Origin: Dendrophyllia cribrosa | Taxonomy: Eukaryota > Cnidaria > Anthozoa > Scleractinia > Dendrophylliidae | Direction of reading: 5' to 3' | Assembly (NCBI GenBank): GCA_024195265.1 | Contig: JAJLRJ010000002.1 | Span: 48,015,252 to 48,079,251 of the forward strand | DNA length: 64,000 nucleotides | In this document: positions 9,181 through 47,000 of the stretch, piece after piece | How the letters are laid out: each line of letters starts with the position of its first letter | Position numbering within the stretch: position 1 is the stretch's first letter | The notes under the pieces: model-generated | What the model was told of the DNA's origin: nothing | Database searches by the model: none | What the model saw: the letters and a program-made list of their open reading frames with translations, nothing else | Position numbers and translations under genes: made by a program

Positions 9181-9280
9181 CGAGGCAGGATGGTTGGTAT
9201 CTATGGTAATTGAGGACAACAATGCACAGGTGATGGGTAAAATCAGGGTGGCAGGGAAGCGTTGCTAGGAAACCCCCCAG

Positions 9281-9481
9281 GGACCAGGAGAGGAGTGTCC
9301 TCCTGGGGGGAGAGCAGATCAGGTGGTACCGGGGGTAGCCACCCTGAATGGGGTCCGCATCTGTTTCCAGTAGGGTGAGGCCCATATCCCTAGTCCATGG
9401 AACTAGAGAACCAGGAGAGGGGTGCCCTCCTGGGGGGAGTACAGATCAGGTGAGACCGTGGGCACCCACCCTGGAATGGAT
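9281..9481. repeat. GC-rich tandem duplication, about 128-bp period
   Basis: Two related blocks (9281-9354 and 9409-9481) share ACCAGGAGAGG, CCTCCTGGGGGGAG, CAGATCAGGTG and CCACCCTG motifs in the same order. They are much more GC-rich than the surroundings and contain internal inverted pairs such as CCTCC/GGAGG. No protein frame is convincing. It could be a repeat, or it could derive from a structured RNA gene. I cannot assign a family. Confidence 0.5.
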
Positions 9482-12222
9482 ATTTCTCCGGACTTGTCTC
9501 CAAGGGCTAAGCCTTGGCTGCACTTCCCTGCCGCCATATTTATTAATAAACAGTTCTGCTACAAAAAAAAACTTGTGGCTGGTAAACTTAAAAAGACAAA
9601 GGTACCAGTCATGGGAGGGTAAGGGGGGGGGGGGGGGGGGGGATTATTGATGCTATGACTGAGTGGGACACACGCTATTACATTATAGGTAGGAGCACTA
9701 ACTTCTTTTACGTGTCCCCAATTAGCAGCAATGCTAAATCTTTTTGACACATTAATAAAGTTATGATGATGATGATGAGCACAAGGGGAAAATATGACAG
9801 AAATGACTGGGACCTTTGTTTGATAACATCTTACAAAGATTGCCTTACATTGGACTTTGCCTTGAAACTGATAGATACATGTACATTGTAAATGAGGTGA
9901 CTAAATCAATATCAGGCTTGACCTTGGCATTTGAGAAATTACTGAAAATACTCTTGGACTTGGGCCGTGAAAGAGTACAGAGAAGAACAGAAATTGTTGT
10001 ACCCTGTGAGATTTGTGTGACAATAGGCCATACAATTAACAAGTGGACTATGGAATAAAATGTTACATGCAGGCAATGAGTGGATTAGTTCAATTGTCTC
10101 AGGTCTCTTTAACATCAGTTTATCCAATTAATATTGTTAACTACTCCCTTTTTGTTTCAACACATTTTTAAGCGACATTCCTGATTTGATCTCTTGAAGT
10201 TACAATCTTTCTTGTGGTTGAAACAGTGACATTGTTCAGGGCATGAACATCCTTAGTGACTTTTTGTCTTTAGAGCTTTCACATACATGTATTATTATTA
10301 TTATTATTACTATTATTCAAGAGCTATTAGGGAAATGGTCAAAACTATTGAACTCGGACAGGACCCATTGCTTTACAAAAGACTGGTGGTCTCTTTATGC
10401 ACACTCCTTCTCCCACCCAAATGCTGTTGTCTTGTTGGTATAGCCCCCATTCTATCAGGAGTAGAAACTGGGCAAAAGATTTCCACCTTCATGTGTCATT
10501 TTAGTAGCAATGCAAACTTCACATTTTTAGGCCAATAAATGTTGTCCATTAACCTAATCAGATAGGTGATATCTTGCATAGCCCCCCTACCACAATACAA
10601 AGTGGATCCTCTTCTAGTATATTTCCTATGACCACTTTCCTTACATATTATTGCCTTTTGAGTTATTACAGGGCTGTTCTGAAAACTACTCTAGTGATGA
10701 ACGCACCTTGTTTTTAATATTTATTGGAATAAAAAAATAACAGTGTCACTCAGTCCAAATAGACAAAATTTTCAGGAAAACATTTTATTTCATTCCAAAA
10801 TGCTTGATTTTCTGACCTAGTTAAAACTCTGACAATTCCAGCATTCACATTGTGCATGATCCAGACCATTATTATGACCAGAGAGTGCTTATATTAAGGC
10901 CTAAAATACAAGCTGTTGGCAATAAATTATTTCCTAGAATTACTTAGGAGGTTCTTGCACTGAATCGCCTCAGTTTTATAATTTCAAAGTAAATAAAGAA
11001 AGCTAACTCAAGAAATAATAGCTTTTATAGCAAATTCTAACCTCCTGACAATTTGCCAATAAATTCTCTCGATGAAGGATTCCCTTCTGTCAATGACAAA
11101 TGCCACCAATACAAATGGTTCATCTAAAACTGATGGTCCACAGAACAATTTTTGACAACCACAAGGGGAGGTGTGACTGCCATGGTTTTACATTAAACTT
11201 TTCAGAAACTGGGTCCACAAATAAAGTAAAACGAGGTAAAATAAAACAAAATGAGGAAAAACGTCTGAGCCTTTTGACTTGAAGTTATTTTGAATATTTG
11301 AGTAGCTGGCCATCTTTACTGTTGTTGTTGGTCACAATAGCTGCTGCCAGTTAATAATGACAGCCTTAGACATCAAGTAAAAGTACAAATACTCATGCAG
11401 TCACCATTGCACAAAAACAGCAGAAGAATCCCTACTAAATCCCCCTTTTGTGGATGTGGATATATGAATATCTTACTGGGCAGGGAACTTTCTTAAAGTT
11501 AATTAACTTTGCCATTTTACAATGCTCCTGGTCAAAGAGTCCACACCAGAGACAAGTGGATGATCATAATATATGCAGCTGCCTTCCAAAAACATCTCCA
11601 AAAATGTCAAGACAATGCCATAAAGCTACTCACTCTTACATAAGTTAATGGAAAATTTCAGGATTTTGAAATGTGCTAAATTGTTTTAAATATCTAAAAC
11701 TGTCAAATTTTAATTAATCCTCAACGATCAAGGGGACCTACTATTGAAATTGAAATTTTAAATATGCTTCGAACATTTCTCAATCTCTCTGTATTCAATC
11801 GGCAAATGTCTTTGACATTTAATACGAAAATTTTACAGTATTTATAAGCAACCGCTATAAATGTAATGAATTTGTAGGTTATATCTGATTCACAAGCTTT
11901 CCAGCCTAAAAAAGTAAGCCTTAAACAAAACCACCTTTTTGTAAGGAGATCCTTCGTCACCTTGTTTTTCATCACGGTCTGCATGCTTTCTTTCGGTAAA
12001 TGGTGAGTCAGCTTTGCTTTGATGTGAAGTCCGCATCTTCTTTAATTATGATTTCCGAGGCAAGCTTAATGGAGAATTCATTTATTTCTCGTAACTTCCA
12101 CAAAATACACCGCACATTATACTTTTTAGTCAGCCATTTTGAAGGGAAGAAAAAGCTGACCAACCAGAGCTTGTGAAAGAACGCCACAAATTAACTGCCA
12201 ATCAGCGGTCTTGTTAGATCAG
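9482..12222. other. Anonymous sequence with simple repeats
   Basis: Contains a G tract (about 9625-9641), a GATGAT run near 9763-9777 and an ATT microsatellite (about 10289-10318). None of the open frames crossing it resembles a known protein. Confidence 0.4.
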
Positions 12223-16231: not shown

Positions 16232-17952
16232 TCTTTTTTTTATTTATTTATTTTTTATTATTATTATTTTATTTTTAACTTCAACCGTCATAACAGACAT
16301 ACTTACAATTGTCAAGATTTCAAGATTATTTACATTACAGCCAAAAAAACAGCCGCGCAATTGCTGAATGAGGCTTGTATTACAAAGAATTAATGCTTAA
16401 TTATGTTGATAAAAGAGAAAATTGACATTTATTTACAGTACACTCTAAAATAAAACAAAAACACACCCAAACATACACACAAAAGCATACACACGAAACT
16501 AATTAAAGGGGGAAAATGTCTTTTGGCCATTTTTCATAAAAGGTTTCTAATTTATTATTCTTAGTGGAAATATATTTTTCAACTTGGTATTTAATTCTTA
16601 CTTTAAATTTGAAACCTTCTATGTTTGGAAGTACCTGTTTCTTTCTACAATCCCATAAATACAATTTACCAATTAATATCAGATAATTTAACAAGGGACA
16701 TTTTGACATCGTTATTCCAATTATAACCTCTCGTAAACGCAACCCGTGAAATTCCTTTGTTATTGTTAAATAATACTGTTCAACATTTTTCCACAACATA
16801 TTTGAGTGCCGACAGTAAAAGAGAAAGTGACATATTGTTTCCTGTTCAGTCTTGCAAAAAGTACATTTGTCATGCTGGAGATATCCAATTTTAAAAAGTT
16901 TTGCATTGGTGTAAAGTATTGAATTTAAAACTTTATATTGAAAGGATTTAACATAAGGCTCCTGTGCTGTTAAGTGGGGAAGGTTGTAAACAATTTTTAA
17001 ATCTTCGTCAGATAAGCCAAAATCATGTTTTAAATTCTTTGCATTATTAGGTAATTGTGCTTTATTTGATACTATTAAAGAATAATAGTCTTTCGTTTTC
17101 TTTTCCGCTATGTCAAAAATCTCATTTCCCTTTATAAAATAAGTATTATCTGTAAAGGTAGTGTACTCTATTATTTTCAAAGAGGAAGGAATTGCGCGCC
17201 TAAGACCTGTCCATGTAAGAAAATTAGTTTTCTCAACTATGTTATTAATTACATTAAAGGATTCTATGTTGTCGAGATTAAACAAGAGATCTTTAATGAT
17301 ACGTATCCCCAAGTCATAATAAGATTTATAAAAAACTGGTTTTCCATCTATTCTTATATCTTTGTTATTCCAAATTATACAGAGCCGTTCTTTATTAGCT
17401 AAAAAGAGATTTCGAAAATCTAACCAACATTCTAAAAGTTCTCTGTAGAAAACCGAGTTAATTGAAAGATCGTCCATTGCATAATTACATTTAAAAAGCA
17501 AAAGACCACCAACATTACTTAGGAGATATAACAAGTAGAATTTCCACGTACTTTCGTTATCGCTGAAAATACGTTTTAGCCAAGCTAATCGTACAGCTTT
17601 GACCAAGCTTTCAATATCTGTCATTTTAATGCCACCGTCTTCATAACTGTTTATTGAAGAGAGCCTTGTTACTTTATCCTTTCCATTCCATAAAAAGGAG
17701 AAAATCAAACTATTCACTTGTTTGATGATTTTACTTGGAGGTGAAAGAATCGAAGATATAAAAACTAGTTTTGGAATAAGTAATGACTTGATTATAATTA
17801 CTTTACCATAAATGGACAGTCCTCTAGATGACCATATATTTATCAGCTGCTTTATGCTGTCAACCTTCCCTTGAAAGTTTTTTTCGTAAAGTAATGATAG
17901 GTCGTATGTAAAAAAGGTTCCTAAAGCTTTAATAGGTTCACTTGGCCATTTA
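16232..17952 (-). mobile_element. Non-LTR retrotransposon, 3' half
   Basis: This is the downstream part of a minus-strand LINE whose upstream part lies at 26839-27474, beyond the inserted 8.9-kb DNA transposon. It contains the C-terminal coding region (16503-17952), a 3' untranslated stretch and an A/T-rich tail region (about 16235-16275 on the plus strand, A-rich in element orientation). The element is heavily 5' truncated, as is usual for LINE copies. Confidence 0.85.
16503..17952 (-). pseudogene. LINE reverse transcriptase polyprotein, C-terminal part
   Basis: This is the continuous C-terminal end of a LINE ORF2-like protein, about 480 residues to the stop. It begins, directly after the transposon junction, with KWPSEPIKALGTFFTYD, the block that follows the reverse transcriptase palm in L1/Tx1-like elements. 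Near its C-terminus it carries CTFCKTEQETICHFLFYC, a C-x2-C...H...C zinc motif like the zf-RVT domain. Removing the intervening DNA transposon and one TA puts this frame directly behind the segment ending KPFGI at 26841. The frame has no stop, so the copy was probably young when it was hit. The clade (L1/Tx1-like) is inferred from motif style. Confidence 0.85.
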
Positions 17953-17981
17953 CAGCGGTGCTCCGTCACGCGTGACCAGTA
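17953..17981 (+). repeat. Left terminal inverted repeat of the 8.9-kb transposon
   Basis: 29 bp, identical to the reverse complement of 26810-26838. It contains the perfect 12-bp palindrome GTCACGCGTGAC, so each end can pair with itself as well as with the other end. After the CCAGTA the two ends diverge. Confidence 0.92.
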
Positions 17982-18142
17982 AATTCCGAGATTTCAAACA
18001 ATGTGTCAAGTTTTGTTTACCATATTTGGGCATTTTAGTGTGTTCTGGGAAATTTGAAGAGAGATTGCAAAGTTCAAAGGGAGATTTGAAAATTTCAACG
18101 CATTTTACCAATGTTCAGACCGATTGATTATTAAATGCTCTA

Positions 18143-19342
18143 GGTCGGGAGTTCAGGCCAGGTAGACCTCTCAGTAAGGAAATAAGAAGACGGATAGTTG
18201 GCATGTATTTGAACGGAGAAGGACCGAGGGCAATCTCAAGAGTTGTTCGTGTTATTCATGGCGGCGTATGTGGCATTATTCGCCATTATCAAACGTACGG
18301 TACATATGCTCCCTTTAGTCAAGGAGGACGAAGTTATCCTTCTAAACTTTCAGACAACGTTCTAGAATCCATAGAATTGTTCAAATTGATGAAACCTAGC
18401 ATGTTTGGAAAGGAAATACGTGAAAGACTGTTGAACGATGGCATATGTGACAGGGGCGGATCAAGGGGGGGGGGGGGGGGTGCAGGGGGTGCGCACCCCC
18501 CCCCCCCCCCCCCCCTGAGATGACCTAGTCTGCGTTGTTCGCTTTTAAAATTTGTTTACGTCACCCTTCAGTTACGTCATTCCTTAGAGGTGCACCCCCT
18601 CCTAAGAAAAATCCTGGATCCGCCCCTGTGTGACGGGCGAAGCTTACCGGCTTTGTCCACGGTCAACAAGGGAATTGTAAACAAGCTCCGAATGTCATAC
18701 AAAAAACTAACTGTCATACCTGGAGAGAGCCAAAGTGATGCTAATGTCGAGAAGTGCAACGAGTGTCTTGAACTTACCTCGAGAATTGATCCATGCAAAC
18801 TTCATTTCTTTGATGAATCTTCTGTGATAAAAACTACCGGAAATCGTCGATATGGTCACAGTTTTGTTGGACAGCGTGCAATAGAAGTCCAGCGCTACGC
18901 ATCGAATGCTAACTATACTGTAAACCTTTTGCAAAGTCTGCGTGGGATCGATTATTATAACATACTGATAGGCCCATCCAATGGCGACGAGTTGGTGAGT
19001 TTTTTTGAATATGTGTTGGAAACTGAAGACGCATTGGGGGCGCCAATCCTTATGCCGGATGATGTAGTTGTAATGGACAACTGCGGCTTTCACCATGGAA
19101 GAGTGACTGAGAGGGCACTTAGAGATATTTTGGAAGATGCAGGGGCTCAACTAGTCTTTCAGCCTCCATATTCACCCCATTTAAACCCATGCGAGTATTC
19201 TTTTGGGCAAATGAAAAGGCACTTGCAATATGATGAGGCCTTTTCTGAATCATTTACTGAAGTTGCTATTATGCAGGCATTAAGTATGATAAATATAAGA
19301 GACTGCATCAATTACTTTAAGCATTGTGGATACTTGCTTTAA
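18143..19342 (+). pseudogene. Tc1/mariner-like DDE transposase, split by a MITE
   Basis: The product would cut and paste the host element at TA sites. The N-terminal part (18143-18450) shows a paired-type helix-turn-helix region starting GRPLSKEIRRRIVGMY and continuing through AISRVVRV. The C-terminal part (18634-19342) carries the RNase-H-like catalytic core: FFDES (first Asp, codon 18812), VMDNCGFHH (second Asp, 19076) and SPHLNPCE (Glu, 19193). There are 38 residues between the second Asp and the Glu. A 178-bp hAT-like MITE sits in between. Removing it and one TGTGA gives an uninterrupted 338-codon frame from 18143 to the stop. No in-frame ATG precedes the helix-turn-helix (a stop lies at 18125), but CTCTAG just before 18143 could be a splice acceptor, so a short upstream exon is likely. 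As it stands the gene is broken. Confidence 0.88.
18451..18628. mobile_element. hAT-like MITE inserted in the transposase
   Basis: The same family as 2979-3165: left end CAGGGGCGGATC, right end GGATCCGCCCCTG, 178 bp, with long G and C tracts at about 18464-18516. It is flanked by a perfect 5-bp duplication TGTGA (18446-18450 and 18629-18633). It interrupts the transposase between the DNA-binding and catalytic regions. Precise loss of the MITE plus one duplication copy would restore the frame. Confidence 0.88.
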
Positions 19343-19923
19343 TTTAGTTTCTGTTTAGGTGCCACAAGCAGATTTCTCTTTGTCAAAAGGGAAGATCATA
19401 GGGAATTTTGCTAGCAAAATATTATAGAAGTAGCAAGTGAAAGTTCAGCTTATTACTATTGAATTAATCATGTTTCACTATTTAACAAACAATATTGAAT
19501 TTTTGATTTTTTATGACTTAATTGTCAGTTCATTGATGTTCATTGTCAATCCTTTTAGCGAAAAAAAAAAATGAAATATAGAATGGAGAGCAAGGGTGGT
19601 GCAGTGGAGCAAGCATTTGTCTCCCACCAATATGGCTGGCCTTGGGCCTAGTGGTTGCATAAAGCAACTTAAGATATCAGATAAGTATTAAGTGTGATTT
19701 TTCTGCAACCATTAACTTTGTCCCAGAGGATTTTCTAGCATGGTATCACGGATAACTCGGCAGAAGATGGATCACAAGTGTGTGCAGGGCGTAGCTAGAA
19801 TTGTTCAAGGCGGGGGGGGGGGGGGAGGTGTCACGCCCAGGGTACTTACCAGATTGCCATGTTGATGTTGACATCCACGCTGTTTTGCTACATTTATCTC
19901 ACAAAGGGGAGGGGGGGGGGAAG

Positions 19924-19960
<37 letters not shown>

Positions 19961-20216
19961 AATGGTTGCAAAGAAGTCCCACTAACATGTAATCTTAAGT
20001 TGCTATCCCTAGAAGAAATGTCGTAAGTGGGTTTAGTTTGCTGTTGGTTTTCAATCTTGGTCTAAGAGGCCTTTCTCTGGGTTTTCCTGTTTCCCTCCTC
20101 AAAAACCAACACTTCCACATTTCATTTAGATCTAGCATGCACAAACATGTTAAATGAGTTAATAAGTATTTCATAGTTACAAGTGTTAAAAATATTTTTT
20201 ACAACCAAAAGCTTAT
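19343..20216. other. Non-coding interior of the transposon, homopolymers
   Basis: After the transposase stop there is no gene. Near 19596-19640 the text GGTGGTGCAGTGGAGC resembles a tRNA A-box, so this may be a SINE head, but no matching B-box was found. At 19811-19825 there is a G tract, and at 19923-19959 a C tract of about 37 nt. Confidence 0.4.
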
Positions 20217-20445
20217 AATAGACCAATTTACAGTTGCCTACTTAGTTAAACCTGCCCTTTGTGTGGAAACGAGGCTGGAGTTGACCTTGTTTTGATACAA
20301 ACCTTTTCATATGTAAATAATGTTATTATGCTAACATGATTTACATATAAAAAGCAGGAAGGTTTTTATCAAAACAAAGTCAACTTCAGCCTTGCTTTTA
20401 CTCAAAGGCCAGGGTACTAAGCACACAACTGTAAAATAGTCTATT
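20217..20445. mobile_element. Foldback MITE, AATAGACC termini
   Basis: Inverted arms run from AATAGACCAATTTACAGTTG at the left to CAACTGTAAAATAGTCTATT at the right. Matching internal blocks include GGCTGGAGTTGACCTTGTTTTGAT against ATCAAAACAAAGTCAACTTCAGCC (broken into arms around an AT-rich loop). It is non-coding and nested in the 8.9-kb element between its two genes. Confidence 0.75.
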
Positions 20446-20818
20446 AGCCTGTAGAGATGACATGACAGTCATAAAAAATTACTCTCATGTCATCTCCAGT
20501 CAGTAGGGTATGATAACATCTGAACTAATTTTGGTTGGAATTTTCACTCCACATTGCTAGATCCAATCCATGTACCAATAACTTTGAATTGGTTTCAGTG
20601 GTAAAATAAAGATTTTCTTCACCATGATTCATGTTTTAAAACTTGTTATGATGAACAAATGAATATTTTTATACAAGAGTCCACTGAAAGAAAACAAAAT
20701 GCTTTTATTGTTTCTCAATACAACCCAACCAATACAATCCCTGGCCTGTAGTAGATTTAAAGCTGCAAATGGTAGGCTTATCATAGCCAACTGTTCCTTG
20801 TATCATTTCTTCTAGTTA

Positions 20819-20979
20819 CAGCCATGCTCCGTCACGCCTGACCAGTAATCCACAAGACTGAAGTGAATATTCTCACGGGAATTCCGAATCTTGGAATGAA
20901 TTTTCAAAACTGACGTGTAAACTTGAAAACTCCATTCAAATTTTCAAAAATACTGGTCACGCGTGACGGAGCATGGCTG
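20819..20979. mobile_element. 161-bp MITE with sibling terminal repeats
   Basis: The ends are CAGCCATGCTCCGTCACGCC at the left and the inverse of CAGCCATGCTCCGTCACGCG at the right, flanked by TA (20817-20818 and 20980-20981). The termini differ from those of the surrounding 8.9-kb transposon mainly at positions 5-6 (CC for GG in the GGTG/CATG block), so it belongs to a sibling subfamily. The interior matches the right part of the element at 21428-21779, so it looks like an internal deletion of that type. Confidence 0.85.
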
Positions 20980-21427
20980 TAAGCTGTTTTACCAGACATA
21001 AAAAAGGAAACAATTCAGAGCATCACACAGAATTCCAATAATTAATCAGTCTCTGCCCCTTACGTTACCATACTGAAACTGAAATGGTGACCACAGTTGT
21101 AGCATTCAAAGTCAATTACAGGGGTAAGGAATTACGTACAAGTACTGGTGCACAGAATGTTAGCAATTTCAACGTTAAACTGATAGGTGTCCTGTAAAGG
21201 GGTGCTAGTGGGGCCAAACCTAAACCCCAAAAGACATTGCATTTTTGCCCATAATCACTTTAGTGTAACTCTTTAGGACAAAACTTAAGTACTCTTTTTG
21301 GAAGATTTTCTCCTTTTTGGTCTTGCCTAATCTTGTTATTTTCCTACCATGGCAGCAATTAAAGCAATTAGTTACCTCTGAGTGACAAATGCCAAATTTG
21401 ATGTGGATGGTTTTGCCCCAGCCCTTA

Positions 21428-21779
21428 CAGCCATGCTCCGTCACGCGTGACCAGTAGTCTAGAGAATGAAATGAATATTTGAATATTTCTTTGTAACGTC
21501 AGAGATTTGACTGAAACCTTGAAGATCTCTGTGGAAAACACTTTGACAGTCACGAATTAACGGAAAATAACTTCGCTGCACGCATAAAAAAAACTAATAT
21601 TGTTCGGATATGTAACATTTCAAACAAAATGATATTTTGTTGCTCTTTGTTTCCGAAAATGCGGTAAAATTCTTACGGGAATTCCGAATCTCGGAATGAA
21701 TTTACAAAACCGACGTGTAAACTTGAAAAATCCATTCAAATTTTCAAAAATACTGGTCACGCGTGATGGAGCATGGCTG
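21428..21779. mobile_element. 352-bp MITE with sibling terminal repeats
   Basis: Termini are as in 20819-20979 (CAGCCATGCTCCGTCACGCG), with TA at 21426-21427 and 21780-21781. Its right-hand interior (GGGAATTCCGAATCTCGGAATGAA onward) is nearly the same as that of the 161-bp copy, while the left-hand interior is extra. It has no coding capacity, so it must depend on a transposase supplied elsewhere, plausibly of the type encoded at 18143-19342. Confidence 0.85.
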
Positions 21780-22204
21780 TAAGTTCCTGCAAGTTAAGAT
21801 TAATTTGTGATAAACAGTAATTTAAAACTATTGAAATGTAAACTTAAAAAAGGACTTCATAATGCAAGAAGAGTTAAAAAAAACTCTTCTAGTACACTGT
21901 ATGTTTCTTGTTAATTGTAGTTTAGATGAACTCAACAAACGTTTGCAGCAATACTGGTCATTGTAAGCTTACTGTTGTGAAATAAAGCTTCCCTCTGCTC
22001 CTTGGATCAAGTGATTCTTCTCACAAATCCTTTTTGTTTTGTAATAACATGTACAGTAGTGGCATAAGATTTTTCTCACATTTCCACCTGCTTTTTCTTT
22101 CTTCCTTTTCTTTTGTTTCCGCCAAACTAAGTGTCAGTTTTGTTTTGTGTATCTGTGTATGTTTTTGTTTTGTTTTGGTAAAAAAAATTATTTCACATGT
22201 GCTA

Positions 22205-25200
22205 TCATGTTGTCATATTTACATGACCAACTGCTACAAAAGTATGGTCAACTGGAACCAAACAATTCATAATATTAGTTCTCAATATCAGTGTCACTTT
22301 TCCTTTATTTTTTGCTTCAGTCAAGCCACTGGAATCCTTGTTGGGTGACTCTACATCTACGTCCACAACATTCACTTGAGAATCACTGTTTTCATCATTT
22401 GGGGTGGATGTTGCTTGGGGTACTAAAGGGGGAGGTTGGGATGTAGTACTTCGTTTATCTTGCAGTGATTGTTGTTTTTCTGCTACAGCTGTGCGCGTTT
22501 TCAGTGACTGTCTCCATATCTCGCCTTTTGAACACTTGGATAATTTGGAATTGTAACTTAATTCCCTTCTTGATTTTCCTTTTCGGTGATCATGATGCTG
22601 ATGTGCTACTGGGCTGTATCGATTTTCACGCCTCTGGTTTGTGTGATAAGCTCTAATGGGTGAACTGAATGGAAACCGATAATCTGGACGACTAATCTGT
22701 AGTGCCTGTCTTTGAGTGGGTCTCATTCCATGGAAGTCACCCTGTGGTGCATTTACTGTTTGACCATTCCAAGGAGACCACTGAACAGGACTAGGTGTTC
22801 GGACACTTGAATGACTACCTACTGAACTTCTTGGACTAAAGATACTTCCAGTACTGTCAGCAAATCTTGGGTAAGGTCCAAATGCATTCCAGGAATCACT
22901 GTTAGCACCAGGGCTTCCCATTCTCAGCCCAGTAGGAGAGGGTGAAAGTTGGCTCATCAGTGAGGGAATTGGAGCTCTTTGAGGGTGATAACTTTGGACC
23001 TGCCTAACATGATATGGATAATATTGCGGACTGTTGCTGTTGAACACACTTGCACATGTATTTCCTGCAAATCAATCAATATCAGTCAATCATTCACTTG
23101 ACTAAAAAAAATCACCATATGGTCAGAGAAGTTGACTTCATGTGTTTCTTCAGATTACAAGTCTAGTAACTTTTGTTAAGTTTGACCTATCCTATTTGTG
23201 GACATTAGTTACGGTATCTTACTTCTTGTCTCATAACCAAACACTGTATTCTTATTTTACAGCCATTTTAATTCATGTTTTCCTTTCATTGTCTTGGATT
23301 ATGGTAATGTAACCAGGAAAAGAGATAATAAAAATTTTCCAGTAATCTGGTTTGAAAAGCCACAGGAATTATGTCAGAACATTCTGATGCAAAACGCCAC
23401 TTCATAAAATGAAAGGCATATGATAAAATCAACATCAATCAAATAACACTAAACATTTTTAATCTCTATAAGATGAAGTGAAAGACCTGTCTTTTGACGT
23501 ATGGTGTTGCGGTAGTCATTTATTAAAGCACACAGATCAGTTTCATCAGATGGTTGAATGTGTTTGCAAGCAGCAGCAAGAACTCTGAGATCATTATCAA
23601 GAGTTGGCCTATGCGAGTACTTCACTGGGTTGCATTGTTTTAGCCTATCCCTCATAAGTCTGAAGAAATTCCCCTGGCTCCTTTCCCTGCATAAAATATT
23701 AATAACAACAGAAGTATGGTCTTGTTATTACACTGAACATATGCATGTAACAAAAAAAGGGTGTACGCAAGTTTCAGGCAATAATTAGAAAAGAAGACAA
23801 GAAACATGAACAATCCTCTAATAATCACATTTACTTTTAGCCCCACCCCTGAGGTAGACTTCACAATCTTAAGGAAGTAAAAGGAAAAGTGTAAATCCAA
23901 AACATCTGTTTTCCTCAAGGCCAAGGGTGAACATAATAACCATAATAAGGATAACACTGTATATTTTATATATGGCTTCCAAAGAAATCAGAGATTCCCT
24001 GACTTTTAAAGTTCAAATTCCCCCAACTGGTCGCTTCCTCAAGCTGTCTTTTCCATCATTATTTTACCATATGCAAAACGTATCCTTTCAATTATCTTAC
24101 TTTGTGCACAGAACTTTTCTTGCCAAGAATTATTTTAGCATTTCATGGTGTCCAAACAATTTTTTTATTATTTCTTGTTTTCGTCAACAAACTGTTTCAA
24201 ATTTTTGCAAGCTTGTGCTCACAGTATGCATTATTTCTTGTTATAAAATGCTCAAGGAAATGCGCACGCTATCATTGGTTAAACCAAGTTCATTATAACT
24301 CGATAAAGCACGCGCGTGACGTAAGGTTCATTATAACCGTTTTTATTTTATAAAAGAAATAAAAAAACTTGTTCCTTGTGCATTGTTGAGTTATATAAGC
24401 ACTTGGGAATTTTTAAGAACACTCGAAAAGTGCGAAAAGCACTCGCCTTGGGCTCATGCTTCTCTGCACTTCTCTCGTGTTCTTAAAAATTCCCGCGTGC
24501 TTATATAACTCAATAATGCACTCGGCACGTTTTTTATTTCTTTAATAAAGCATGTACATTATGTAAAGAGTACATATGTTTTATGGTTATATAAAAACGT
24601 TTTTTTTTATTAATTCTATTGTGGGCATTTGTTTCAACATTTTACATAGTGACATAAAATACACATTTATGAAAAGAAATGAAAAGCTTCTTTGCAGAGC
24701 AGCCTTATTCAGTCAGTGACTTTACTGTTGGTGTTTTAGATTTGATTTAAATTACCTGACTCTTTTTCATTCTTTCCCAAAATATATATTCCTCAAGACT
24801 TTTTCCTGGCCTTGAAGGATTTACCTCACCACTTCCTTACTTTGAGTCACACCTATTTTAGAACTAAAATGAAGTGAAAAATAACAAACAATAATTTAAC
24901 ATACTTCAACATTTGAAAGGCTTCCTCCTCTTCCTCCTCTTCCTCCTTCTTCTTGCACAGTTTTTGTAATTCTTTCACCTCTGTTTCTTGCTTTCACAAA
25001 ACAGAAATAACAACAGTGAATTCAACTCCTTCATCACGTTTGTATTTATTAGCCAATAATAATTGGCTTTCCTCCTACCAGTTTGGGATTTTGAAATTGC
25101 TTAGTTTCATTTGAAATATTTATTTGCAATATAGAGTGTTTACTATCATTCCGATACTTAAAAAGTCCCTTGAACAGATATGTGTACTCAAACAAACAAA

Positions 25201-26684
25201 CAACATCCTTTATTTATACACGATAAAAGTTAAAGGTGGTGCTCATCAGAAATTTTCATAGCACCCACAAAAGGTAACAAAATTTTGTTTTGTGGGCATG
25301 ACTCAATTCATTTTGACCTAGCCTGAGTGGTACCAATAAAAATTATTCCAAAACAACAAATTACATGTAACTGGCATTGACAATTTTTGAAAAGATGATG
25401 CGGCTCATCCCCGATGTAATATCTCACAGCTGACATCACAATAGCAAAACAATACTGATGATGCAATCCAAAATGTGTAGTTCCAGAAAAAATCCATACC
25501 CACCCCATGGAAGGTCATTGGAAATTCCTAGGGGGAGGGGGGTCTTAAAAGCCAATATTGTAGAAGCAAAGTATGAAGCTAAACTGGAATTTCCTGGGGG
25601 GACGGGGGGGTGCTAAACAAAAAACCTTCCGTGGGGGGAGTATGGATATTTTCTGGAACTGCACAATCTAAATAAGAATAGGATGAAAAAAAAGAAAATC
25701 ATAAATTATATTACACCGGGGATGACCCGATGATGCACAAAAAGGTGACCGCACAAAAATGCCCCTATAAAGGCTACCATGACAACTCTAAACAGCAGTC
25801 ATTTTGGATTTTAGCACCTAAAAGGTACAACGAGCACCCCCGTTGTTTTTTATACGAGAGTCCCCCAGGGGTGTCCAACTTGAACCTATGCAGGAGAATC
25901 AAAAGCATTTTAACTGCAAACATTGATCTGGGGAGTTAAAAAAAATAAGCTACATTTTTTTTACACGAATATCGTACCTCTTGAATCTTGGCTTTGTGGT
26001 CTTTGTGTAAATTTAACACTCCACAATCAAAGTACGACTGGCAAGCTGGCAAAGTACAAGGTTTGTTTACCCTGTGCCCTCTCACGTGGCAATTCGAACA
26101 CACCACTGATCGACTACTGCCAATCGGTTCTCGTTCAGGAACCCTTTCTTTAAGGCTTACCAGTTTTGCCCGTGCAATGTCCAACTTGTAACGCAATGCT
26201 TCTTTGTCTTCGGTAATCCTCTTGATTGACTTCTCCACTCCCCTTCCTTCCCCACACTCACGATCATCTCGTTGCACAACTTTAAAAGATCCTGATACTG
26301 TTGTAGCGGAGATAGGAGAGCGATTTATCATTAAAAGTGGTGTCGTGGCCTTGGTCGATCCGCTGTTTTGGATAGCAGTGTGGATAGTGACTTCTTTAAT
26401 TTCCAAAGAGTAGTCACTTGAATCGTCGCACGTGTCCTCCGCAACATTTTCCGATTCTACTGTCTTCACACAGGACTGCAGCATTAATGATTCTTCTTGT
26501 TCGAAGAAACGGGAATGCCCCGTCGGCAAAATTTGTAATTCTGCGGTAGAAGATCGCCAACTTCGCTATCTAAAACATGACGAACATTAGCAAGTCTAGA
26601 GCCGAGAAAGCTTCGGGGCCTCTCGATATAACATAGGATAGATCCATCGATACTTCTTACTTCGACGAATATCGAACTTTCCAT
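22205..26684 (-). CDS. Transposon accessory protein, zinc-knuckle and coiled coil
   Basis: A spliced gene running toward the transposase, starting about 150 bp inside the right terminus. Exons by splice sites and phase: 26684-25978, 24990-24905, 23686-23487 and 23064-22205. All junctions keep frame and give about 617 residues once a one-base frameshift near 26491-26500 (codons after SSNK) is allowed for. Residues 1-65 (MESSIFVEVRSIDG onward) look like a small beta-grasp-type domain, which is only a guess. Residues about 150-182 are a predicted coiled coil. Residues about 196-231 hold C-x2-C-x4-H-x5-C-x4-C-x5-C and later His, a zinc-knuckle-like segment. Exon 2 is Lys/Glu rich. The last exon is Ser/Pro/Gln rich and probably disordered. 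The function is unknown. Its place suggests a DNA- or protein-binding partner of the transposase. The frameshift may be a real mutation or an assembly error. The donors at 23486 and 25977 are non-optimal, so the exact ends are provisional. Confidence 0.6.
24352..24544. mobile_element. Foldback MITE in accessory-gene intron
   Basis: Inverted arms pair AAAGAAATAAAAAAAC with GTTTTTTATTTCTTT. They also pair TGCATTGTTGAGTTATATAA with TTATATAACTCAATAATGCA, and GGGAATTTTTAAGAACAC with GTGTTCTTAAAAATTCCC. The loop contains an AAGTGC-rich stretch. It lies in the intron between exons 2 and 3 of the accessory gene. Confidence 0.75.
25479..25659. mobile_element. MITE with AGTTCCAGAAAA termini
   Basis: The left arm AGTTCCAGAAAAAATCCAT, then ACCC and ATGGAAGG blocks, is mirrored at the right by CCTTCC, GGGGAGT and ATGGATATTTTCTGGAACT. 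It is 181 bp, with G-rich internal direct repeats. No clear target duplication was found. It lies in the first intron of the accessory gene. Confidence 0.65.
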
Positions 26685-26809
26685 CTTCGATCCGTACCTC
26701 TACATCTTGATTTCTAAATTTCAACGAAATCTCCGATATTCCAATGTGATCTCCGTTGCGTCACTCTAAGTAGCGCGCTTATTGAAAGACTCGGATCACA
26801 TGTTCAAGA

Positions 26810-26838
26810 TACTGGTCACGCGTGACGGAGCACCGCTG
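26810..26838 (-). repeat. Right terminal inverted repeat of the 8.9-kb transposon
   Basis: The perfect inverse of 17953-17981, including the GTCACGCGTGAC palindrome, followed by the TA duplication at 26839-26840. Confidence 0.92.
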
Positions 26839-27474
26839 TAATACCAAACGGTTTTTCGTCTTTTCTTTTAAGCGAACCAATCCACATTCCTTCTGTTTTA
26901 GAGCTATTTATCTCCAACCCACTGAAGTTCTTAAATACTTCTAGTTCTTCAAATAACCTTTTTGCAGAATTTTCATCAGACAGGGTTGCTGTGGTATCGT
27001 CTGCGTATTGCAATAGCTTGGCTTCATGATTTCCTATTTTAATTCCTTTGATATCAACATTTTGACGAATAGAGGTTGCCAAGCTTTCAACAGCTAAGAT
27101 AAAGAGGTAGGGGGACAAGGGATCACCCTGCCTCACACCACGTTCTAAAGTAAAATAGTCTGATGCCATTCCATTATTTATTACACAGCTTTGAATATTT
27201 GTATAAAACATTTTGACCCAATTTATAAAATTAGGGCCAAAATTAAAGGCCTCGAGGCAACTGAAAAGATAATGCCATTCTAAAGAGTCGAAAGCTTTTT
27301 TAAAGTCAATGAAAATCAAGATACCTGGAATATTCTTTCTTTCTGTCTGTAAATTCCATTATATCGAAAATTGATCGAATAGTCTCACCAATATAGCGAT
27401 CTTCAACATAACCTGTTTGATTATAATGTATGATATTCGGTAGAACTTTCTTTAATCTTAAAGCTATCACTTTT
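26839..27474 (-). pseudogene. LINE reverse transcriptase, palm region (5' piece)
   Basis: This is the upstream part of the retrotransposon cut by the 8.9-kb element. In element orientation it shows FIDFKKAFDSLEW (palm motif A), RQGDPLSPYLFILAVE (fingers/palm motif B) and YADDTT (catalytic YxDD box, motif C), then SGLEINSSKTEGMWIGS, ending KPFGI at the junction. Upstream of about 27319 the frame shifts: a 4-nt duplication (AAAG-type) near 27340 separates an earlier segment (KVIALRLKKVLP ... TDRK) that belongs to the same protein. The copy is 5' truncated at about 27474, where another repeat begins. It was probably inactive before the DNA transposon landed. Confidence 0.88.
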
Positions 27475-29771: not shown

Positions 29772-30830
29772 AACAACAACAACAACAATTTATTGAGGTA
29801 TTTCCATTTCTATACATGGCATTACCTTATATAAATTATATAATTATGTAAATTTCTAATACAGTTTCACTTGTTATATAACTTTTTATATCTAGAGTTC
29901 ATGATTTCATAGACAAAAGCAGCAACTGATCTACAAATAAATGGGTCGATGCTATTAAAGAGGAACAAAATTTTTGAACTAATATCTAATTGTTTAAAAA
30001 ATTGGTATTTTGCAGTGATTTCATCAAAAAATTTGATTCGAAAGCTATCATAAAAAGTGCAAGAGAATAGAACGTGAGATTCGTTTTCAACATCATTAAC
30101 CTGGCACAAATTGCAAATTCTTAAATTTTCAGGAGTTTTTGGTACAGTATGTCTTCCAGTTTCAATGCGGAGTTGATGATTTCCTAAGCGAAATTTATTT
30201 ATAGCGGTTCTATGGAGGGGATTTATAATAGCATCTAGAAAAACAGTTTGTTTAGTGTCTGTTTTAAAAGAGTTGTAAAAGCACAGTTTTCTGTTTGAGT
30301 TAAGAAGTGAGAGTTGATGGTTAATTAATGCTTTGCGTATATTTTGATTGACGTGGTTAATAAACGCTTTACAGTTGTTGTCATTTAAAACCATGGAACT
30401 AGAAATATACTTTTTGCATAGCATTTTAATTTTCTGTGACAATCCTGGCTGGTTTTTGTCAGCCATTTCTTTAGAGATCTGCAAACATTGTTTTGCAATG
30501 TTATTTTCTGGTAAAGTTTGTAAATGTATCCAGAATTTGAGAATGGAAGTGTCGATATTCAATTTCAAGGATAATCTTCCGAGTTCATTTCTAGCTGCAA
30601 CGTTTGGGCATTGTTTATTTACTCCTAAGGATTGCTTACAGAGGAAAATATGCGTTTTTTCTATTTCATCTTTTTCCCAAGTACTAATGTCATCTTTATC
30701 ATAGATTCCCCATACCTCAGACCCGTAGAGAAGAATTGGCAAAAAGAGTGAATTAAAAAGTTTATTAGTCATATTAAGTGGAACTTTGGAGAAATCTAGA
30801 ATATAGAGAACAAGAGAGCTGACAAGAGAC
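29772..30830 (-). mobile_element. 5'-truncated LINE tail inside the Mutator-like element
   Basis: In element orientation this begins near 30830 with no 5' part, runs through coding sequence (30772-29867) and a short 3' untranslated region, and ends in a (TTG)n simple tail (plus-strand ACAACAACAACAA, 29772-29789). Tail-anchored 5' truncation is typical of target-primed LINE insertion. Confidence 0.75.
29867..30772 (-). pseudogene. LINE reverse transcriptase C-terminus
   Basis: About 301 residues open to the stop. LPILLYGSEVWG matches the block after the reverse transcriptase palm in many LINEs. FRLGNHQLRIETGRH and CNLCQVNDVENESHVLFSC (C-x2-C ... H-x4-C) are the usual C-terminal zinc-bearing tail. 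The polymerase core and endonuclease are absent, so this is a dead fragment. Clade is uncertain. It is clearly a different family from the LINE at 16232-27474. Confidence 0.8.
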
Positions 30831-32489
30831 GTCGCTAGAGGTGGACCAATATTATGTGGCGAGCGGCCTCAAACATACGAGATATTAGAATTCTTCGATA
30901 ACAGAGGGTGTAACAAAGCTTTATTTCGCTCCAGAGGAAAATAGGCCGGCGAAACACACGAAATTTGTTCGTCGACATCGGAAAGGGTACGTCAAGCGAT
31001 GTTGTTTTCAATGAAAGCGCTTATTGTTAAGATTAATATTATTTTGCAAAAGAAAATAACATTCCGGCCGGTGTGGCCGTTTAATCAAGCATAATTTTTC
31101 CAATCCATATCCTGTTTGGAAGTTCCTTCAAGCCTCGGCTTGACTGGATAGCCGTCGAAGTCAGTGAGGCCTACAAAAATATACTGACTCGATCGGCACT
31201 GACTGGCGAGTAATATAAATGTTTATACGGTATTCCGAATTATAAAATTCAAAGTGCAGCGACGCAAGTGTTCACTGGAAGGCGTCTATTCTACGGAACA
31301 TCTATCAAACATTTACACGTACAAATGCGTAAGACTATTCGAAACAAAATACATCGCTGAATCATTGCGTGTTCGATCAGATCAATTTTTATACAATGAA
31401 ATATAAATCAGACATAAATGTAAACACGATACTTTGAACTCACTTACAAGCCGCCAAGTGGTTAAAATTTCCAGAAACGATCAATCGCTGGCAAGACACT
31501 GAACTAAGAAGCATAATTATTACGTATATACTTGAGTTCAAACATTTTGAATAAAAAAATAAAAAAATACGCTATCAAGGCACCTTGCCGCTAAAAATAC
31601 ACCATTCACATTCAATTCAGCAAGCCGCCTGAAAAACACCACCTCGGATATGCATAACATATCAGTATAATTTAGAAACTTTCAACTAGCAAGCCGCCAA
31701 GACATATCCTTCGCATTGAAAAAAGAACTTTAAGTAGACGAGCGAATTGCCAAGCCGATAAAATAAGTTCATAACCTCCACGCGCGATCAATGAACTTCA
31801 GAGAAGACCGGCCGAGTCGCTTATGCGCTAATATCATGATTGTTTGTACTACAAATATATCGTTCGCGTTCGATAAACGCTAGTCAACGAGCCACTAAAA
31901 AGAAATAACAAAAACGCCTCTGCGTTCAATAAGCTTACAACTTAACTGGCGAACCACTGAGACGCTGTGCTACTGAAATGTATACCTTTCACGTTCAATA
32001 ATCTAAATGATCAAACTCCGTCTTCTTCATGTTCACTTCCTTCGCTCAAGCGGCACAGTCGGTTCGTCTCGCTACGGCAAAACTACAGTGGACACGATCA
32101 TTTCAGTTGATCAAGAGTGATCCGAAACTGATCCTTTTCACCTTCAGAGGACTGTAAAAAAACAAATTAGGCGCTGCCTGACATTTGTACAGCCAAAAAC
32201 GTTGGCAAAATGACCATCACGCTAAAGGATTCCAAGGGAATTATAGCGTAAACAAACCAATGTGTCATACTATTTACGTAATTTACGTCATCACGCACGC
32301 CCACTCGCCCCCAGGCTCTCCAAAAATTAGAGCCACTTTTCAACCGAAGTGACGCATTTTCGAGGGGCTAAAAAACCGATTTTCTTTCTTTTCCTCGGGA
32401 AATGATTATTGTTTTCGTTCTTTGGACATAATAAACTAATGAAAAACGAAGAAAAAAAATTCATTTCATAGGCACTTTAATCCTCCTCC

Positions 32490-34711: not shown

Positions 34712-34809
34712 TGCGTGCACTCAGAACTACAGGAAACGTCTTTAAAAGTGGGCACTGCTTCGAGCAGCAATAAATATATTGCTTTATATAAGTTACAAGA
34801 TTAAGACTC

Positions 34810-38326
<3,517 letters not shown>

Positions 38327-44061: not shown

Positions 44062-47000
44062 TCAGACGTACAAGGCGTATATGTCCATGCAAGTCTCCCC
44101 ACCATTGTCACTTTCAAAAACATTAAGCAGATCTTCGACGTACCAAACCTTAAACTCTTGACCAGTAGCTACTCTCAGGGGTACGGAGAGGTTGTTGAAT
44201 GTCAGTTCAGGTGAATCAGAACGCATACCGGGTAGTGTGTATGTTTTTGCCTCAGATATTTGCGGGAATACAACTGTATTGTTATCGCTAGTGACAACAG
44301 TTGCAAGGCTTTCTCCCACAGCGCATCCACAATAACTAAAACGGTTATTATCAGACCTTTTACAAGACACCTTGCCTCTTAAATGTACTAATTTAACTGA
44401 GGCGATAAAACCGTTAAGCTGCATGGTGAACGCTCCGTAAGAATCACCCTGGGCTCCAAAACACACTTCGTTTATGTTGACTTTGAGCCAAGTAGGAACT
44501 GAAACAAACACAAGAAATGCATTTTAAAATTCAATTAAACAGCAAGTAACAAGGAGGCTTTTGAGTGTTATTTTCTTATGGTTACAGTCCCCTCTGAAGT
44601 CAAGGCTCGAGTCGCGAACTCAGTCCAGCTCAGTCGATTTGAAACGTTAACGCACCGCTAGGCACTTTCAATGAAACTATTTCTTTCTAACTTTACCTTT
44701 TATGCCACAGAACTCTCCAATGTATCCAGGAAAACAACGGCAAACAAATCCATGGGTTTCGTACAGTGGATGACACGTGGAGCCATTCTGACACGGGGCG
44801 TACTCACAGGGGCTCTAAACAATAAAACACGAAATGACACATTCACTTCCTGAGTCAATAGACCAATTTCGATATATTAAAATTCATACTTGGCTCCGAG
44901 GCTTGGGCAATAAAACAAAAGAAATGAATAATTCAACGCTGAACCTTAATGTGATTTCTTTTGTTTTATTCCCCCAAGCCGCGGAGCCAAGTATGAATTT
45001 TGATATATCGAAATTGGTCTATTATGGGAACATGTAGTGTAGCTCTAACTTTTGAGTCAGTGGACAAAATCCTATGGTATGAACATTTAAATGAAACCTC
45101 TTCGGCAAAACTTTTGCATGGTACCATTTGTTTTTCAATATTTAACAAAATGATATTTGGGATGTTTTTCTTGAATTTTGGTTTGTAAGCACCCTTGGGT
45201 GTTAAAGAGATAATACCTGTCAGTTTCATTTACTCCGTGATCTTTTAAATTAATTTTATTTTCCTTTTTTTTTTATTGAACATTACTAGCTTTTACATTT
45301 ACATTTGCATAGAAAAAATAAATTAACAAGGTAACAGAAAAACAACAGGGTAATAGCTTTAGACAAAGGCAATAAGGTAAACAAGTAAAGTATAATTACA
45401 GAACATTGAATTGATGATGAAAAGAAAAGAAAATAATGTGTCAGGCATATGCCGGTAGTAACTGCTTGGATATGAAAAGATTCAAAAAGGTGGACTGAGA
45501 GATATGGTTAAACAAAACCTATCGAAAAACCGCAGCTAAAGATGAAGAGAGCAGTGATGTACTATGAAATAATTTTTTTAAAAAGCATTAAAAAGAGGCC
45601 ATTTTTTTTGGAAAAACGCTACCTTGTTTTGTTTCTATATCATATACAGATTTCGCATTTCGGAGGAAGCCCGTCATACGAGGTAAAAGTTATTTTGATT
45701 TGCTTTTGAAAGGTAAACTGTTTGATTTTCTGACCAGTCTACTGATTTAATGATTGAACGAACGAACGGACGAATGAATGAATAAATGAATGAATGAAGG
45801 TCTGGATGGATAGATAGATGGATGGAAGGGGAGAAGCTAAAGAAAAGATGGATCTGAACAGATGAATCGGTGTGTCCATCTATTAATGTTAAATGAACAC
45901 AGTGTTAAGTTTCTAAAACATCTTTCGGATGAATCACATCTATCATCAGTTTGAAGTGGATTATAACCACTAACTGGTTACAATCTAATAACCGCACGGG
46001 AATCATCAGATATAATTTGAGACGTGCTAAATCTTTAATGCAATGCAATAGACAATATTCGTGTTCTCGGTATTGCTTGCAATGGATACTCATGCGGGGA
46101 AATATATCAAAAAATATTCGCATGTGAAAAGATTGTCCCGCATGAACCTCGACTGCAAGCTACAATTCCAGTTCAATACCGAGAAAACGAATATTCTTGT
46201 CTATTCTTTAACACAATTGGCGTTTTCGTCAGTGTTATTCGCTATTGTGGCACTTCAAATTCGGAATTTTAAATCCTAAATTTTAGTTTTACTAATTCTC
46301 TTCTCTAAATTATCAAAAAAAAAAAATAGAAAAACAAAACAACATAACATCTGCTTACAAAGTATAGGAGACATTTTTAGATTTATAAAAATAGCTCTAA
46401 CGTAAGGTAGAAATTAGACTGCAAAACATTCGTATTTTTTGCGTTGGTCATACGAATGCGCGCGGTCTTTGAACGAAAGGTCTGGAGCGAGTGTGAATAT
46501 GGAGAGTGAGACTGGGGATGCGGGAGTGTGAGGCTCGCGCGCTTCGTGCGCGGGTATCCACGCTTCAGACGCTTTTGGCGCTTCGCGCCTTTGCGAGCGA
46601 GCCAGCGGAAAAAACGACTGTTTTGCAGTCTAGGCAGAAACGTTTATATTTAACTACACTTCTTACATCTAGCGTATTCACGAAAATCACCCAAAATGTG
46701 CCGCTAGCTAAATACAAATAAGAAAACTAGAAAGCCTTCAGCTCCCAAAAATAGCGTTTCGCTTTTAAATGAAACGTTGCAAAGAGCTAATCACCAACCA
46801 CTCTGGCTTTCAGCCAATGTCAAAAACGTCTGACTGCTCGTTGGTTCACCTCCTTCAGGATTTCAGAGTAACTGATAATATATAACGTAACAGATAAAAA
46901 TTATATCGCTAAATAAAACGAAAGAGTTATGTAGTGCGTTTCAGTTACAACAAAGACCTCTTAAATATAAATAATATAAATGATAAAGCTTTAAAATAAT

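What the first reader, a model, noticed from the sequence alone, without database searches (positions are those of the whole stretch)
17953..26838. An 8.9-kb Tc1/mariner-like transposon that carries a convergent accessory gene
Seen: perfect 29-bp terminal inverted repeats, TA duplication, a Tc1-type DDE transposase at one end and a spliced multi-exon gene of opposite strand starting about 150 bp from the other end. Known: Tc1/mariner elements are normally 1-2 kb with one gene and no introns. Inference: this is a large two-gene family in which the second protein may serve transposition, end recognition or host interaction. The repeats nested inside show the copy is not brand new, but it still has perfect ends.
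Basis: partly seen in the sequence, partly recalled or inferred. Interest (0 to 1): 0.88.

Follow-up and report, generated by a model that had tools for sequence, protein, structure and literature searches.

The report
Two-gene transposon with Pax-like ends
This 8.9-kb jumping gene from an animal genome carries two genes instead of the usual one, a transposase with a Pax-type DNA-binding domain and a second, unstudied protein found beside related transposases in many other places of the same genome, and because its ends resemble published Pax binding sites it likely jumps by reading its own ends the way Pax proteins read DNA, with the second protein predicted to help.

Summary
Six copies compared in the own genome differ by 0.55-1.19%, carry remains of both genes and have unrelated flanks. 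The second gene is an old partner: 31 of 43 accessory loci lie within 10 kb of a PAX transposase (0.15 expected), 26 convergent; a diverged second family (3.9-5.3 kb) has the same layout. Two additions: the transposase has a Pax-grade paired domain (45 of 104 residues identical to Drosophila Paired), and TIR nt 13-24, GTCACGCGTGAC, resemble published Pax sites; the second family keeps this core (TTCACGCRTGAA) in register while its other TIR bases diverged. Against generality, a more distant locus (L050) has an inverted repeat around both genes without such a core. One copy lacks an internal MITE and keeps TACTGTA, a Tc1-type excision footprint. The accessory protein's helper role is inference. 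No copy examined has both genes intact, and the young copies look neutral.

The parts
17951..17952 (.). TA target-site duplication, left
17953..17981 (+). left terminal inverted repeat, 29 nt, identical to the right one
17965..17976 (+). 12-bp palindrome GTCACGCGTGAC, nt 13-24 of the TIR, Pax-type core
   Evidence: published Pax sites
18111..19342 (+). paired-domain (PAX) DD38E transposase gene, intronless; broken here by a frameshift near the start and by a MITE
18451..18628 (.). 178-bp MITE (ends CAGGGGCGGATC / GATCCGCCCCTG, flanked by TGTGA) interrupting the transposase; absent from C1, C3A and C22, present in C20; C3B has a deletion there
20819..20979 (.). MITE1 with TIRs CAGCCATGCTCC + Pax-type core, TA-flanked; in all six copies compared
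21428..21779 (.). MITE2, same TIR type; in five of six copies, missing in C22, which keeps TACTGTA there
22205..23064 (-). accessory gene exon 4 (Ser/Pro/Gln-rich tail, stop); no match found in the diverged loci
23487..23686 (-). accessory gene exon 3 (55-59% aa identity to the diverged loci)
24905..24990 (-). accessory gene exon 2 (Glu/Lys-rich)
25978..26684 (-). accessory gene exon 1: N-terminal conserved block, predicted helix, zinc-knuckle-like C/H module; one frameshift in this copy
26810..26838 (-). right terminal inverted repeat
26815..26826 (-). Pax-type core of the right TIR
26839..26840 (.). TA target-site duplication, right
26841..27358 (-). LINE reverse transcriptase, upstream half of the split ORF (RVT_1)
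16503..17950 (-). LINE ORF, downstream half (zf-RVT); joins in frame with the other half to a 655-residue frame

Best explanation
This is a two-gene Tc1/mariner transposon, TA-flanked and repeated in its genome, whose paired-domain DD38E transposase likely binds a Pax-type site at nt 13-24 of each end and moves the whole 8.9-kb unit by cut-and-paste, while the co-inherited zinc-knuckle-like second protein is predicted to help it. Shown: the ends, the TA duplication, the split LINE frame, further copies with both genes at unrelated sites, the paired domain, the Pax-type core kept in register in two families, a Tc1-type footprint where an internal MITE is missing from one copy, and accessory genes beside PAX transposases at many loci. 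Inferred: that the paired domain contacts this core, that staggered 3-nt cleavage follows as in Sleeping Beauty, and that the accessory protein (conserved N-terminal block, predicted helix, CX2CX4HX4-5C motif plus a second C/H cluster) binds nucleic acid or transposase to aid synapsis, nuclear entry or end protection. Also inferred: the window copy would need transposase from elsewhere, since it and copy C20 share the MITE that breaks the transposase yet sit at unrelated sites.
For: Ends and TSD; LINE frame restored in the joined flanks; copies and divergence; no similarity between copies among 9 flanks of 6 copies at 5 loci; paired domain vs PDB: Prd 1.4e-16, Pax8 2.4e-16, against 3.2e-4 for the Sleeping Beauty PAI subdomain; 45 of 104 residues identical to Prd, keeping G15, R16, R44, H47, G48, G69, G70; Foldseek hits of relative P0001: Mos1 5.4e-10, Pax6 3.0e-9, Pax5 7.5e-9, Prd 4.9e-8, target TM 0.45-0.57; 38 residues between second D and E; TIR core vs published Pax sites; second family with the same layout and core register; family-1 vs family-2 TIR identity 1 of 9 at nt 4-12, 10 of 12 at nt 13-24; footprint TACTGTA; 31 of 43 accessory loci near a transposase vs 0.15 expected; accessory exon 1 identical at 47-55, 57-63 and 30-32% of codon positions 1, 2, 3 against four diverged loci, so long-term protein-level selection; 697 genome matches to the TIR-plus-core pattern vs 1 for the reversed control.
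Against: None of the six copies checked is intact in both genes, and substitutions among them fit neutrality (observed vs expected N/S 2.62 vs 2.62, 2.25 vs 2.52, 4.25 vs 2.59, 1.00 vs 2.64 on only 4 changes). No binding or transposition was measured. The window TIR departs from the Pax6 core at 2 of 11 positions; longer published sites fit less well (207 and 872 of 20000 shuffles as good), and family 2 fits the Paired and Pax2 sites only modestly (162-933 of 20000). N14, S46 and I68 of Prd are not kept. Among five more distant loci (L048-L052) no TIR with a Pax core was found; flanks were short, but in L050 a 28-nt inverted repeat brackets both genes and has no such core. Four non-composite loci have the accessory on the same strand as the transposase. 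12 of 43 accessory loci have no transposase hit within 10 kb. Exon 4 gave no match in four diverged loci. The accessory model is poor (pLDDT 41) and neither Pfam nor the PDB sequences name the protein.
Confidence: 0.7

Rival explanations
1. The second gene is a passenger, once captured and carried along with no role in transposition, perhaps acting on the host (for example against silencing).
For: Young copies show no sign of selection on it, nor on the transposase; no annotation in Pfam or PDB; many PAX transposases in this genome have no accessory hit within 10 kb (50 of 50 loci at 25-39% identity, 30 of 55 at 40-60%).
Against: It is present beside transposases only about 44-51% identical to each other, is conserved at codon positions 1 and 2, and in the elements whose ends were identified its first exon begins beside one end: more than a chance capture would keep.
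Confidence: 0.25
2. A composite: two single-gene or MITE-like elements flanking a host gene fragment moved once as a unit.
For: The element holds internal TIR-bearing MITEs, and left and right ends share nothing beyond 31 nt, the TA included.
Against: Both outer TIRs carry the same subfamily letters (GCGGTG) against GCCATG in the MITEs; several copies with both ends and both genes; a diverged family with the same layout and its own distinct TIRs.
Confidence: 0.03
3. The Pax match in the TIR is coincidence: an ordinary TIR palindrome, with Tc1-type binding elsewhere in the end.
For: Matches are partial in family 1 (9 of 11; 149 of 20000 shuffles as good, 181), several published sites were tried, and the inverted repeat around both genes in L050 has no such core.
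Against: The core alone is kept at the same register in a second family whose other TIR bases diverged; its right TIR matches the Pax6 core exactly (1 of 20000 shuffles); the transposase N-terminal part is Pax-like over 106 residues.
Confidence: 0.22

Closest known systems
Tc1/mariner DD38E Intruder family (PMC7731502; passages seen, some from the abstract)
   Same: TA target, TIRs, DDE transposase, 38 residues between second D and E
   Different: Intruder is 1.5-1.7 kb with a single ORF; the complete elements read here are 3.9-9.6 kb with two genes; kinship not tested by a tree
Transposases with PAIRED-domain similarity used as outgroup to PRD genes (PMC4901127, section 33 read)
   Same: transposase with a Pax-like paired domain, in acorn worm and oyster there
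   Different: that section reports no element structure, second gene or TIR site
Sleeping Beauty / Tc1 DD34E
   Same: paired-like bipartite DNA-binding domain, TA target, 3-nt CAG/CTG footprint (recalled)
   Different: the SB PAI subdomain matches only 48 residues at 3.2e-4; single gene (recalled)
Pax2/5/8 and Paired proteins
   Same: paired domain about 43% identical to Prd and Pax8; binding sites like the TIR core
   Different: transcription factors without a transposase domain (recalled); this is not a Pax gene
Multi-ORF Tec elements of Euplotes (recalled, no call)
   Same: large TA-flanked Tc1-related elements with extra ORFs
   Different: ciliate elements whose extra genes are unrelated as far as recalled; not compared here

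Membership tests
Tc1/mariner superfamily | TA target-site duplication | tested here: met
   TA at the element ends read, except the C3A/C3B junction, which has none
Tc1/mariner superfamily | TIRs and DDE transposase with D, D, E | tested here: met
Tc1/mariner superfamily | cut-and-paste with small footprint | tested here: met
   TACTGTA where MITE2 is missing in C22; shown for the MITE, not for the large element
Intruder (DD38E/IT) | 38 residues between second D and E | tested here: met
Intruder (DD38E/IT) | 1.5-1.7 kb, single ORF | tested here: not met
   paper PMC7731502
Intruder (DD38E/IT) | groups with IT transposases in a tree | not tested
   no reference sequences of IT held
Pax (PRD class) genes | complete paired domain | tested here: met
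   the relative P0001 is modelled whole; in the window the RED part is split by the MITE
Pax (PRD class) genes | transcription factor without DDE domain | tested here: not met
   DDE_3 follows in the window and lies in the same protein in 93 of the 120 relatives listed
CCHC zinc knuckle proteins | CX2CX4HX4C with Gly before His | tested here: inconclusive
   read by eye: exact in L048-L050, X5 in the window family; no Pfam zf-CCHC hit for the window family

The most novel reading that the evidence does not exclude
A clade of animal Tc1/mariner transposons is an obligate two-component system, PAX transposase plus zinc-knuckle partner, and in its Pax-grade families the ends are Pax binding sites. 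The paired domain of developmental Pax genes descends from such a transposase together with its end-recognition code, and the hundreds of MITE ends still in the genome (697 pattern matches) are live Pax-type sites that host Pax proteins can bind, so that transposon and developmental network can compete for, or exchange, the same DNA code.
Probability: 0.22. Interest if true: 0.93.

Novelty: new variant of a known kind. Interest (0 to 1): 0.77.

Why it matters
Most Tc1/mariner elements are 1.3-2.4 kb with one gene (PMC7731502, passage). A lineage that keeps a second, intron-containing gene across families would be a new architecture and a candidate helper for moving long cargo. The finding also bears on a long-standing question, how the Pax paired domain arose from a Tc1-type transposase: here a transposase has a Pax-grade paired domain and ends that resemble Pax sites, so end recognition and Pax recognition can be compared in one binding assay.

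Tried and rejected
Rejected: composite transposon, chance TIR pair, and host gene next to an insertion (LINE frame, further copies, second family). The 1826-aa open frame at accessory hit C21:28028008 is made by a run of N, not evidence of a host gene. Viral-contig scans with the TIR, transposase half, accessory exon and alignment A1 found no relative; the TIR 21-mer was not in genome contigs. The transposase C-terminal half found no PDB sequence at E 0.1. A 565-aa spliced accessory query found nothing (its first ten or so residues lie before the frameshift, in a frame that relatives do not use); the exon-1 piece found 5 relatives, 4 of them at 58-62% identity. The accessory structure model was too poor for a fold search. 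Coral MITEs of PMC2872659 are piggyBac-type with TTAA (passages). A right-end search of the genome and the empty-site search did not complete.

Literature: searches looked for PAX-type transposases or two-gene Tc1/mariner elements. Searches found no paper; the others were seen as lists of titles and abstract beginnings, for some only 25 of 450, 25 of 145 and 12 of 51, those of 79 mostly off topic. I saw no two-gene Tc1/mariner element with a PAX transposase and no report of Pax sites in TIRs there; this is weak evidence of absence. Only openly licensed PMC papers are held; Repbase and Dfam could not be searched. Passages of PMC8290160 and PMC8533490 gave background; PMC4345280 matched only by a primer. 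The acceptor check was off by one and printed the wrong dinucleotides; the probe letters show AG. On re-reading for this report I added the L050 inverted repeat without a Pax core and lowered confidence from 0.72 to 0.70, the novel case from 0.25 to 0.22, and raised the coincidence rival from 0.20 to 0.22.
Full report
WHAT IS THERE. The element runs from 17953 to 26838, flanked by TA on both sides. Its TIRs are identical over 29 nt and the ends share nothing beyond 31 nt, the TA included. It lies inside a LINE ORF on the minus strand: RVT_1 ends at the right junction and zf-RVT follows the left one. Joining the flanks with one TA gives a single 655-residue frame, which is what a unit insertion with TA duplication predicts.

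GENES. Left: an intronless transposase, 18111-19342. Its N-terminal part matches PAX (E 4.5e-22), its C-terminal part DDE_3 (E 3.8e-20). 38 residues separate second D and E, 87 first and second D. In the window it is broken by a frameshift just after the start (compare relatives P0001 and P0110) and by a 178-bp MITE; copies C1, C3A and C22 lack the MITE at that site, and C3A has an open 348-residue frame. Right: a gene on the minus strand, ATG at 26684, four exons in my model with GT-AG introns and matching phases (read); GT donors are kept in 6 of 6 copies. Exon 1 has one frameshift in the window and is open in C20.

COPIES. The left 101 bp has five 100% matches, the window included, and one 95% match in the own genome (627 Mb, 22 contigs); three 30-nt matches are right ends and one 76% match is a diverged element on C4. 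Besides the window I read C20 (7.8 kb), C1 (8.6 kb), C3A and C3B, and C22. All six carry remains of both genes and differ by 0.55-1.19% substitutions over the parts aligned. C20, C1 and C3B have both ends; C3A's right end is interrupted and C22's was not found in the stretch read. A further, truncated copy with a right end is L043. Nine flanks of the six copies (five loci) show no similarity between copies, so these are separate insertions, not one duplicated segment. Window and C20 share the MITE-broken transposase, so one descended from the other, or both from a broken copy; this points to movement in trans (inference).

FOOTPRINT. MITE2 (21428-21779) is in five of the six copies; in C22 the site reads TACTGTA. 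TA-CTG-TA is the 3-nt footprint known for Sleeping Beauty-type excision (recalled). This shows excision of a MITE with these ends, though the enzyme could be a sibling transposase.

PAX DOMAIN. The 106-residue N-terminal piece matches Drosophila Paired (1.4e-16), Pax8, Pax5 and Pax6 over its whole length, but the Sleeping Beauty PAI subdomain only over 48 residues (3.2e-4). It is identical to Paired at 45 of 104 positions and keeps G15, R16, R44, H47, G48, G69 and G70, but not N14, S46 or I68; [quoted passage not shown] The model of relative P0001 (pLDDT 85) hits Mos1 first, then Pax6, Pax5 and Paired, with target TM-scores of 0.45-0.57. A protein search with the catalytic half gave 527 relatives at E up to 1e-3, 120 listed; by my count of that list 93 carry both PAX and DDE_3, 25 DDE_3 only, 2 PAX only. 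Sources with species names include Porites lutea, Porites harrisoni, Oculina patagonica and Actinostola, so the host is likely an anthozoan (inference). Of 121 sequences compared (120 relatives and the window piece), 98 had a BLAST match to Pax chains, the window piece ranking 8th. PAX-like transposases were already used as an outgroup of Pax trees (PMC4901127, section 33).

PAX-TYPE CORE IN THE ENDS. TIR nt 13-24 are GTCACGCGTGAC, a perfect palindrome holding GTCACGC on both strands. Published sites, read in passages: Pax2 ..TTGTCACGCATGAGTGG.. (PMC2832668), Prd PHO CAATTAGTCACGCTTGA and Pax6 P6CON ANNTTCACGCWTSANTKMNY (PMC2612750), and CD19-2(A-ins), used for PAX9..GGTCACGCCTCAGTG.. (PMC5638407). 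Shuffles of the window TIR doing as well, of 20000: P6CON core 181 and 149, full P6CON 77, PHO 23 and 29, Pax2 20-mer 207, Pax2 16-mer 14, CD19-2 872, GTCACGC alone 145. GTCACGCNTGA occurs 10 times in the 64-kb window, all inside TIRs of this element or its MITEs. A second family (L045, L047, one TIR in L044) has TIRs CAGTCAACGCAC-TTCACGCRTGAA: against family 1, nt 1-3 agree 3 of 3, nt 4-12 1 of 9, nt 13-24 10 of 12, nt 25-29 1 of 5; its right TIR matches the Pax6 core 11 of 11 (1 of 20000 shuffles), its left 10 of 11 (14), but PHO only 9 of 12 (209 and 233) and the Pax2 16-mer 11 and 10 of 16 (162 and 933). The left TIR of L047 reads TTCACGTGTGA. The pattern TACAG-N9-KTCACGCRTGAM occurs 341 + 356 times in the genome against 0 + 1 for the reversed control; in the part listed most are MITE ends, and three family-2 pairs on C1 (22551289/22552696, 37133276/37134687, 42017911/42019319) bracket small elements holding the heads of both genes.

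LIMITS OF THE CORE. In five loci of more distant transposases (L048-L052) I found no TIR with a Pax core. Flanks were short. L050 has a 28-nt inverted repeat around both genes that lacks the core and may be the TIR of that family; L052 has two GTCACGTGA sites just upstream of its transposase, not followed up. So the core is shown for two families only.

THE SECOND GENE IS AN OLD PARTNER. A search with a relative of exon 1 gave 47 matches, a search with transposase P0001 gave 119 (312 candidates, 116 scored, so a lower bound). Merged to 43 and 110 loci, 31 of 43 accessory loci lie within 10 kb of a transposase (26 convergent, 5 same strand, one of these an effect of the C3 pair), 0.15 expected if placed at random. 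Six of the 31 belong to the window family. Seen from the transposase, 0 of 50 loci at 25-39% identity, 25 of 55 at 40-60% and 5 of 5 above have one within 10 kb. Of the 12 accessory loci without such a hit, one has it at 13.5 kb, C4 (L014) holds the heads of both genes between inverted ends, L043 keeps its right TIR and L044 a family-2 TIR; eight remain unassigned. L045 (5.3 kb) and L047 (3.85 kb) show the full layout in family 2. Accessory exon 1 against four diverged loci is identical at 47-55, 57-63 and 30-32% of codon positions 1, 2, 3; exon 3 at 59-62, 69-77 and 33-49%; exon 4 gave no match; the transposase against L045 and L047-L050 at 52-60, 64-71 and 32-35% (L014, a short stretch, 78, 73, 66). 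That is long-term selection on both proteins. Among the young copies the changes look neutral in both genes.

WHAT THE PARTNER MAY DO. Relatives P0121-P0124 are 58-62% identical over exon 1; P0125 matches over a short piece. By eye there is CX2CX4HX4-5C followed by a second C/H cluster, like a Gag-type knuckle; Pfam gives no support. A long helix, residues 143-179 of P0121, holds the best-scored part of an otherwise poor model. I infer a nucleic-acid-binding or bridging helper; this is the weakest step.

VERDICT. The main gains are that the two-gene architecture extends over diverged families and that, in two of them, enzyme and ends both look Pax-like.

Noticed in passing
L010/L011, G000:C3:4442721-4460298: Two copies lie end to end: copy A is cut in accessory exon 1 and joined directly, without TA, to the right end of copy B, which runs the other way; left ends face outwards with TA on both sides. 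Possibly an aberrant transposition product.
   Followed up: partly
genome-wide, e.g. G000:C1:1678388-1678742: A MITE family with ends CAGCCATGCTCC-GTCACGCGTGAC, often paired about 330 bp apart, makes up most of the listed part of 697 pattern matches.
   Followed up: partly
L050 and hits C3:10498620, C21:27872951, C17:21472976: Loci in which the accessory gene lies on the same strand as the transposase, unlike the convergent majority; L050 has a 28-nt inverted repeat around both genes.
   Followed up: partly
L052, about 1430-1465: Two GTCACGTGA sites just upstream of a distant PAX-type transposase without accessory gene.
   Followed up: no
window 24361-24538: 178-bp inverted repeat in an accessory intron, present in six copies and twice in C22.
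   Followed up: no
window 29867-30868 (-): 333-aa open frame resembling the C-terminal part of a LINE-type ORF (by eye).
   Followed up: no
window 34792-35619 (+): 275-aa frame that looks like a rhodopsin-type GPCR (by eye).
   Followed up: no
window 44062-44523 and 51216-51695 (-): Two similar frames (SVPTWLKVN.../SVPSWNEVN...), perhaps a tandem gene family (by eye).
   Followed up: no
L044:1189-1525 and 9238-9595: Arms of another inverted repeat beside a family-2 accessory gene.
   Followed up: no
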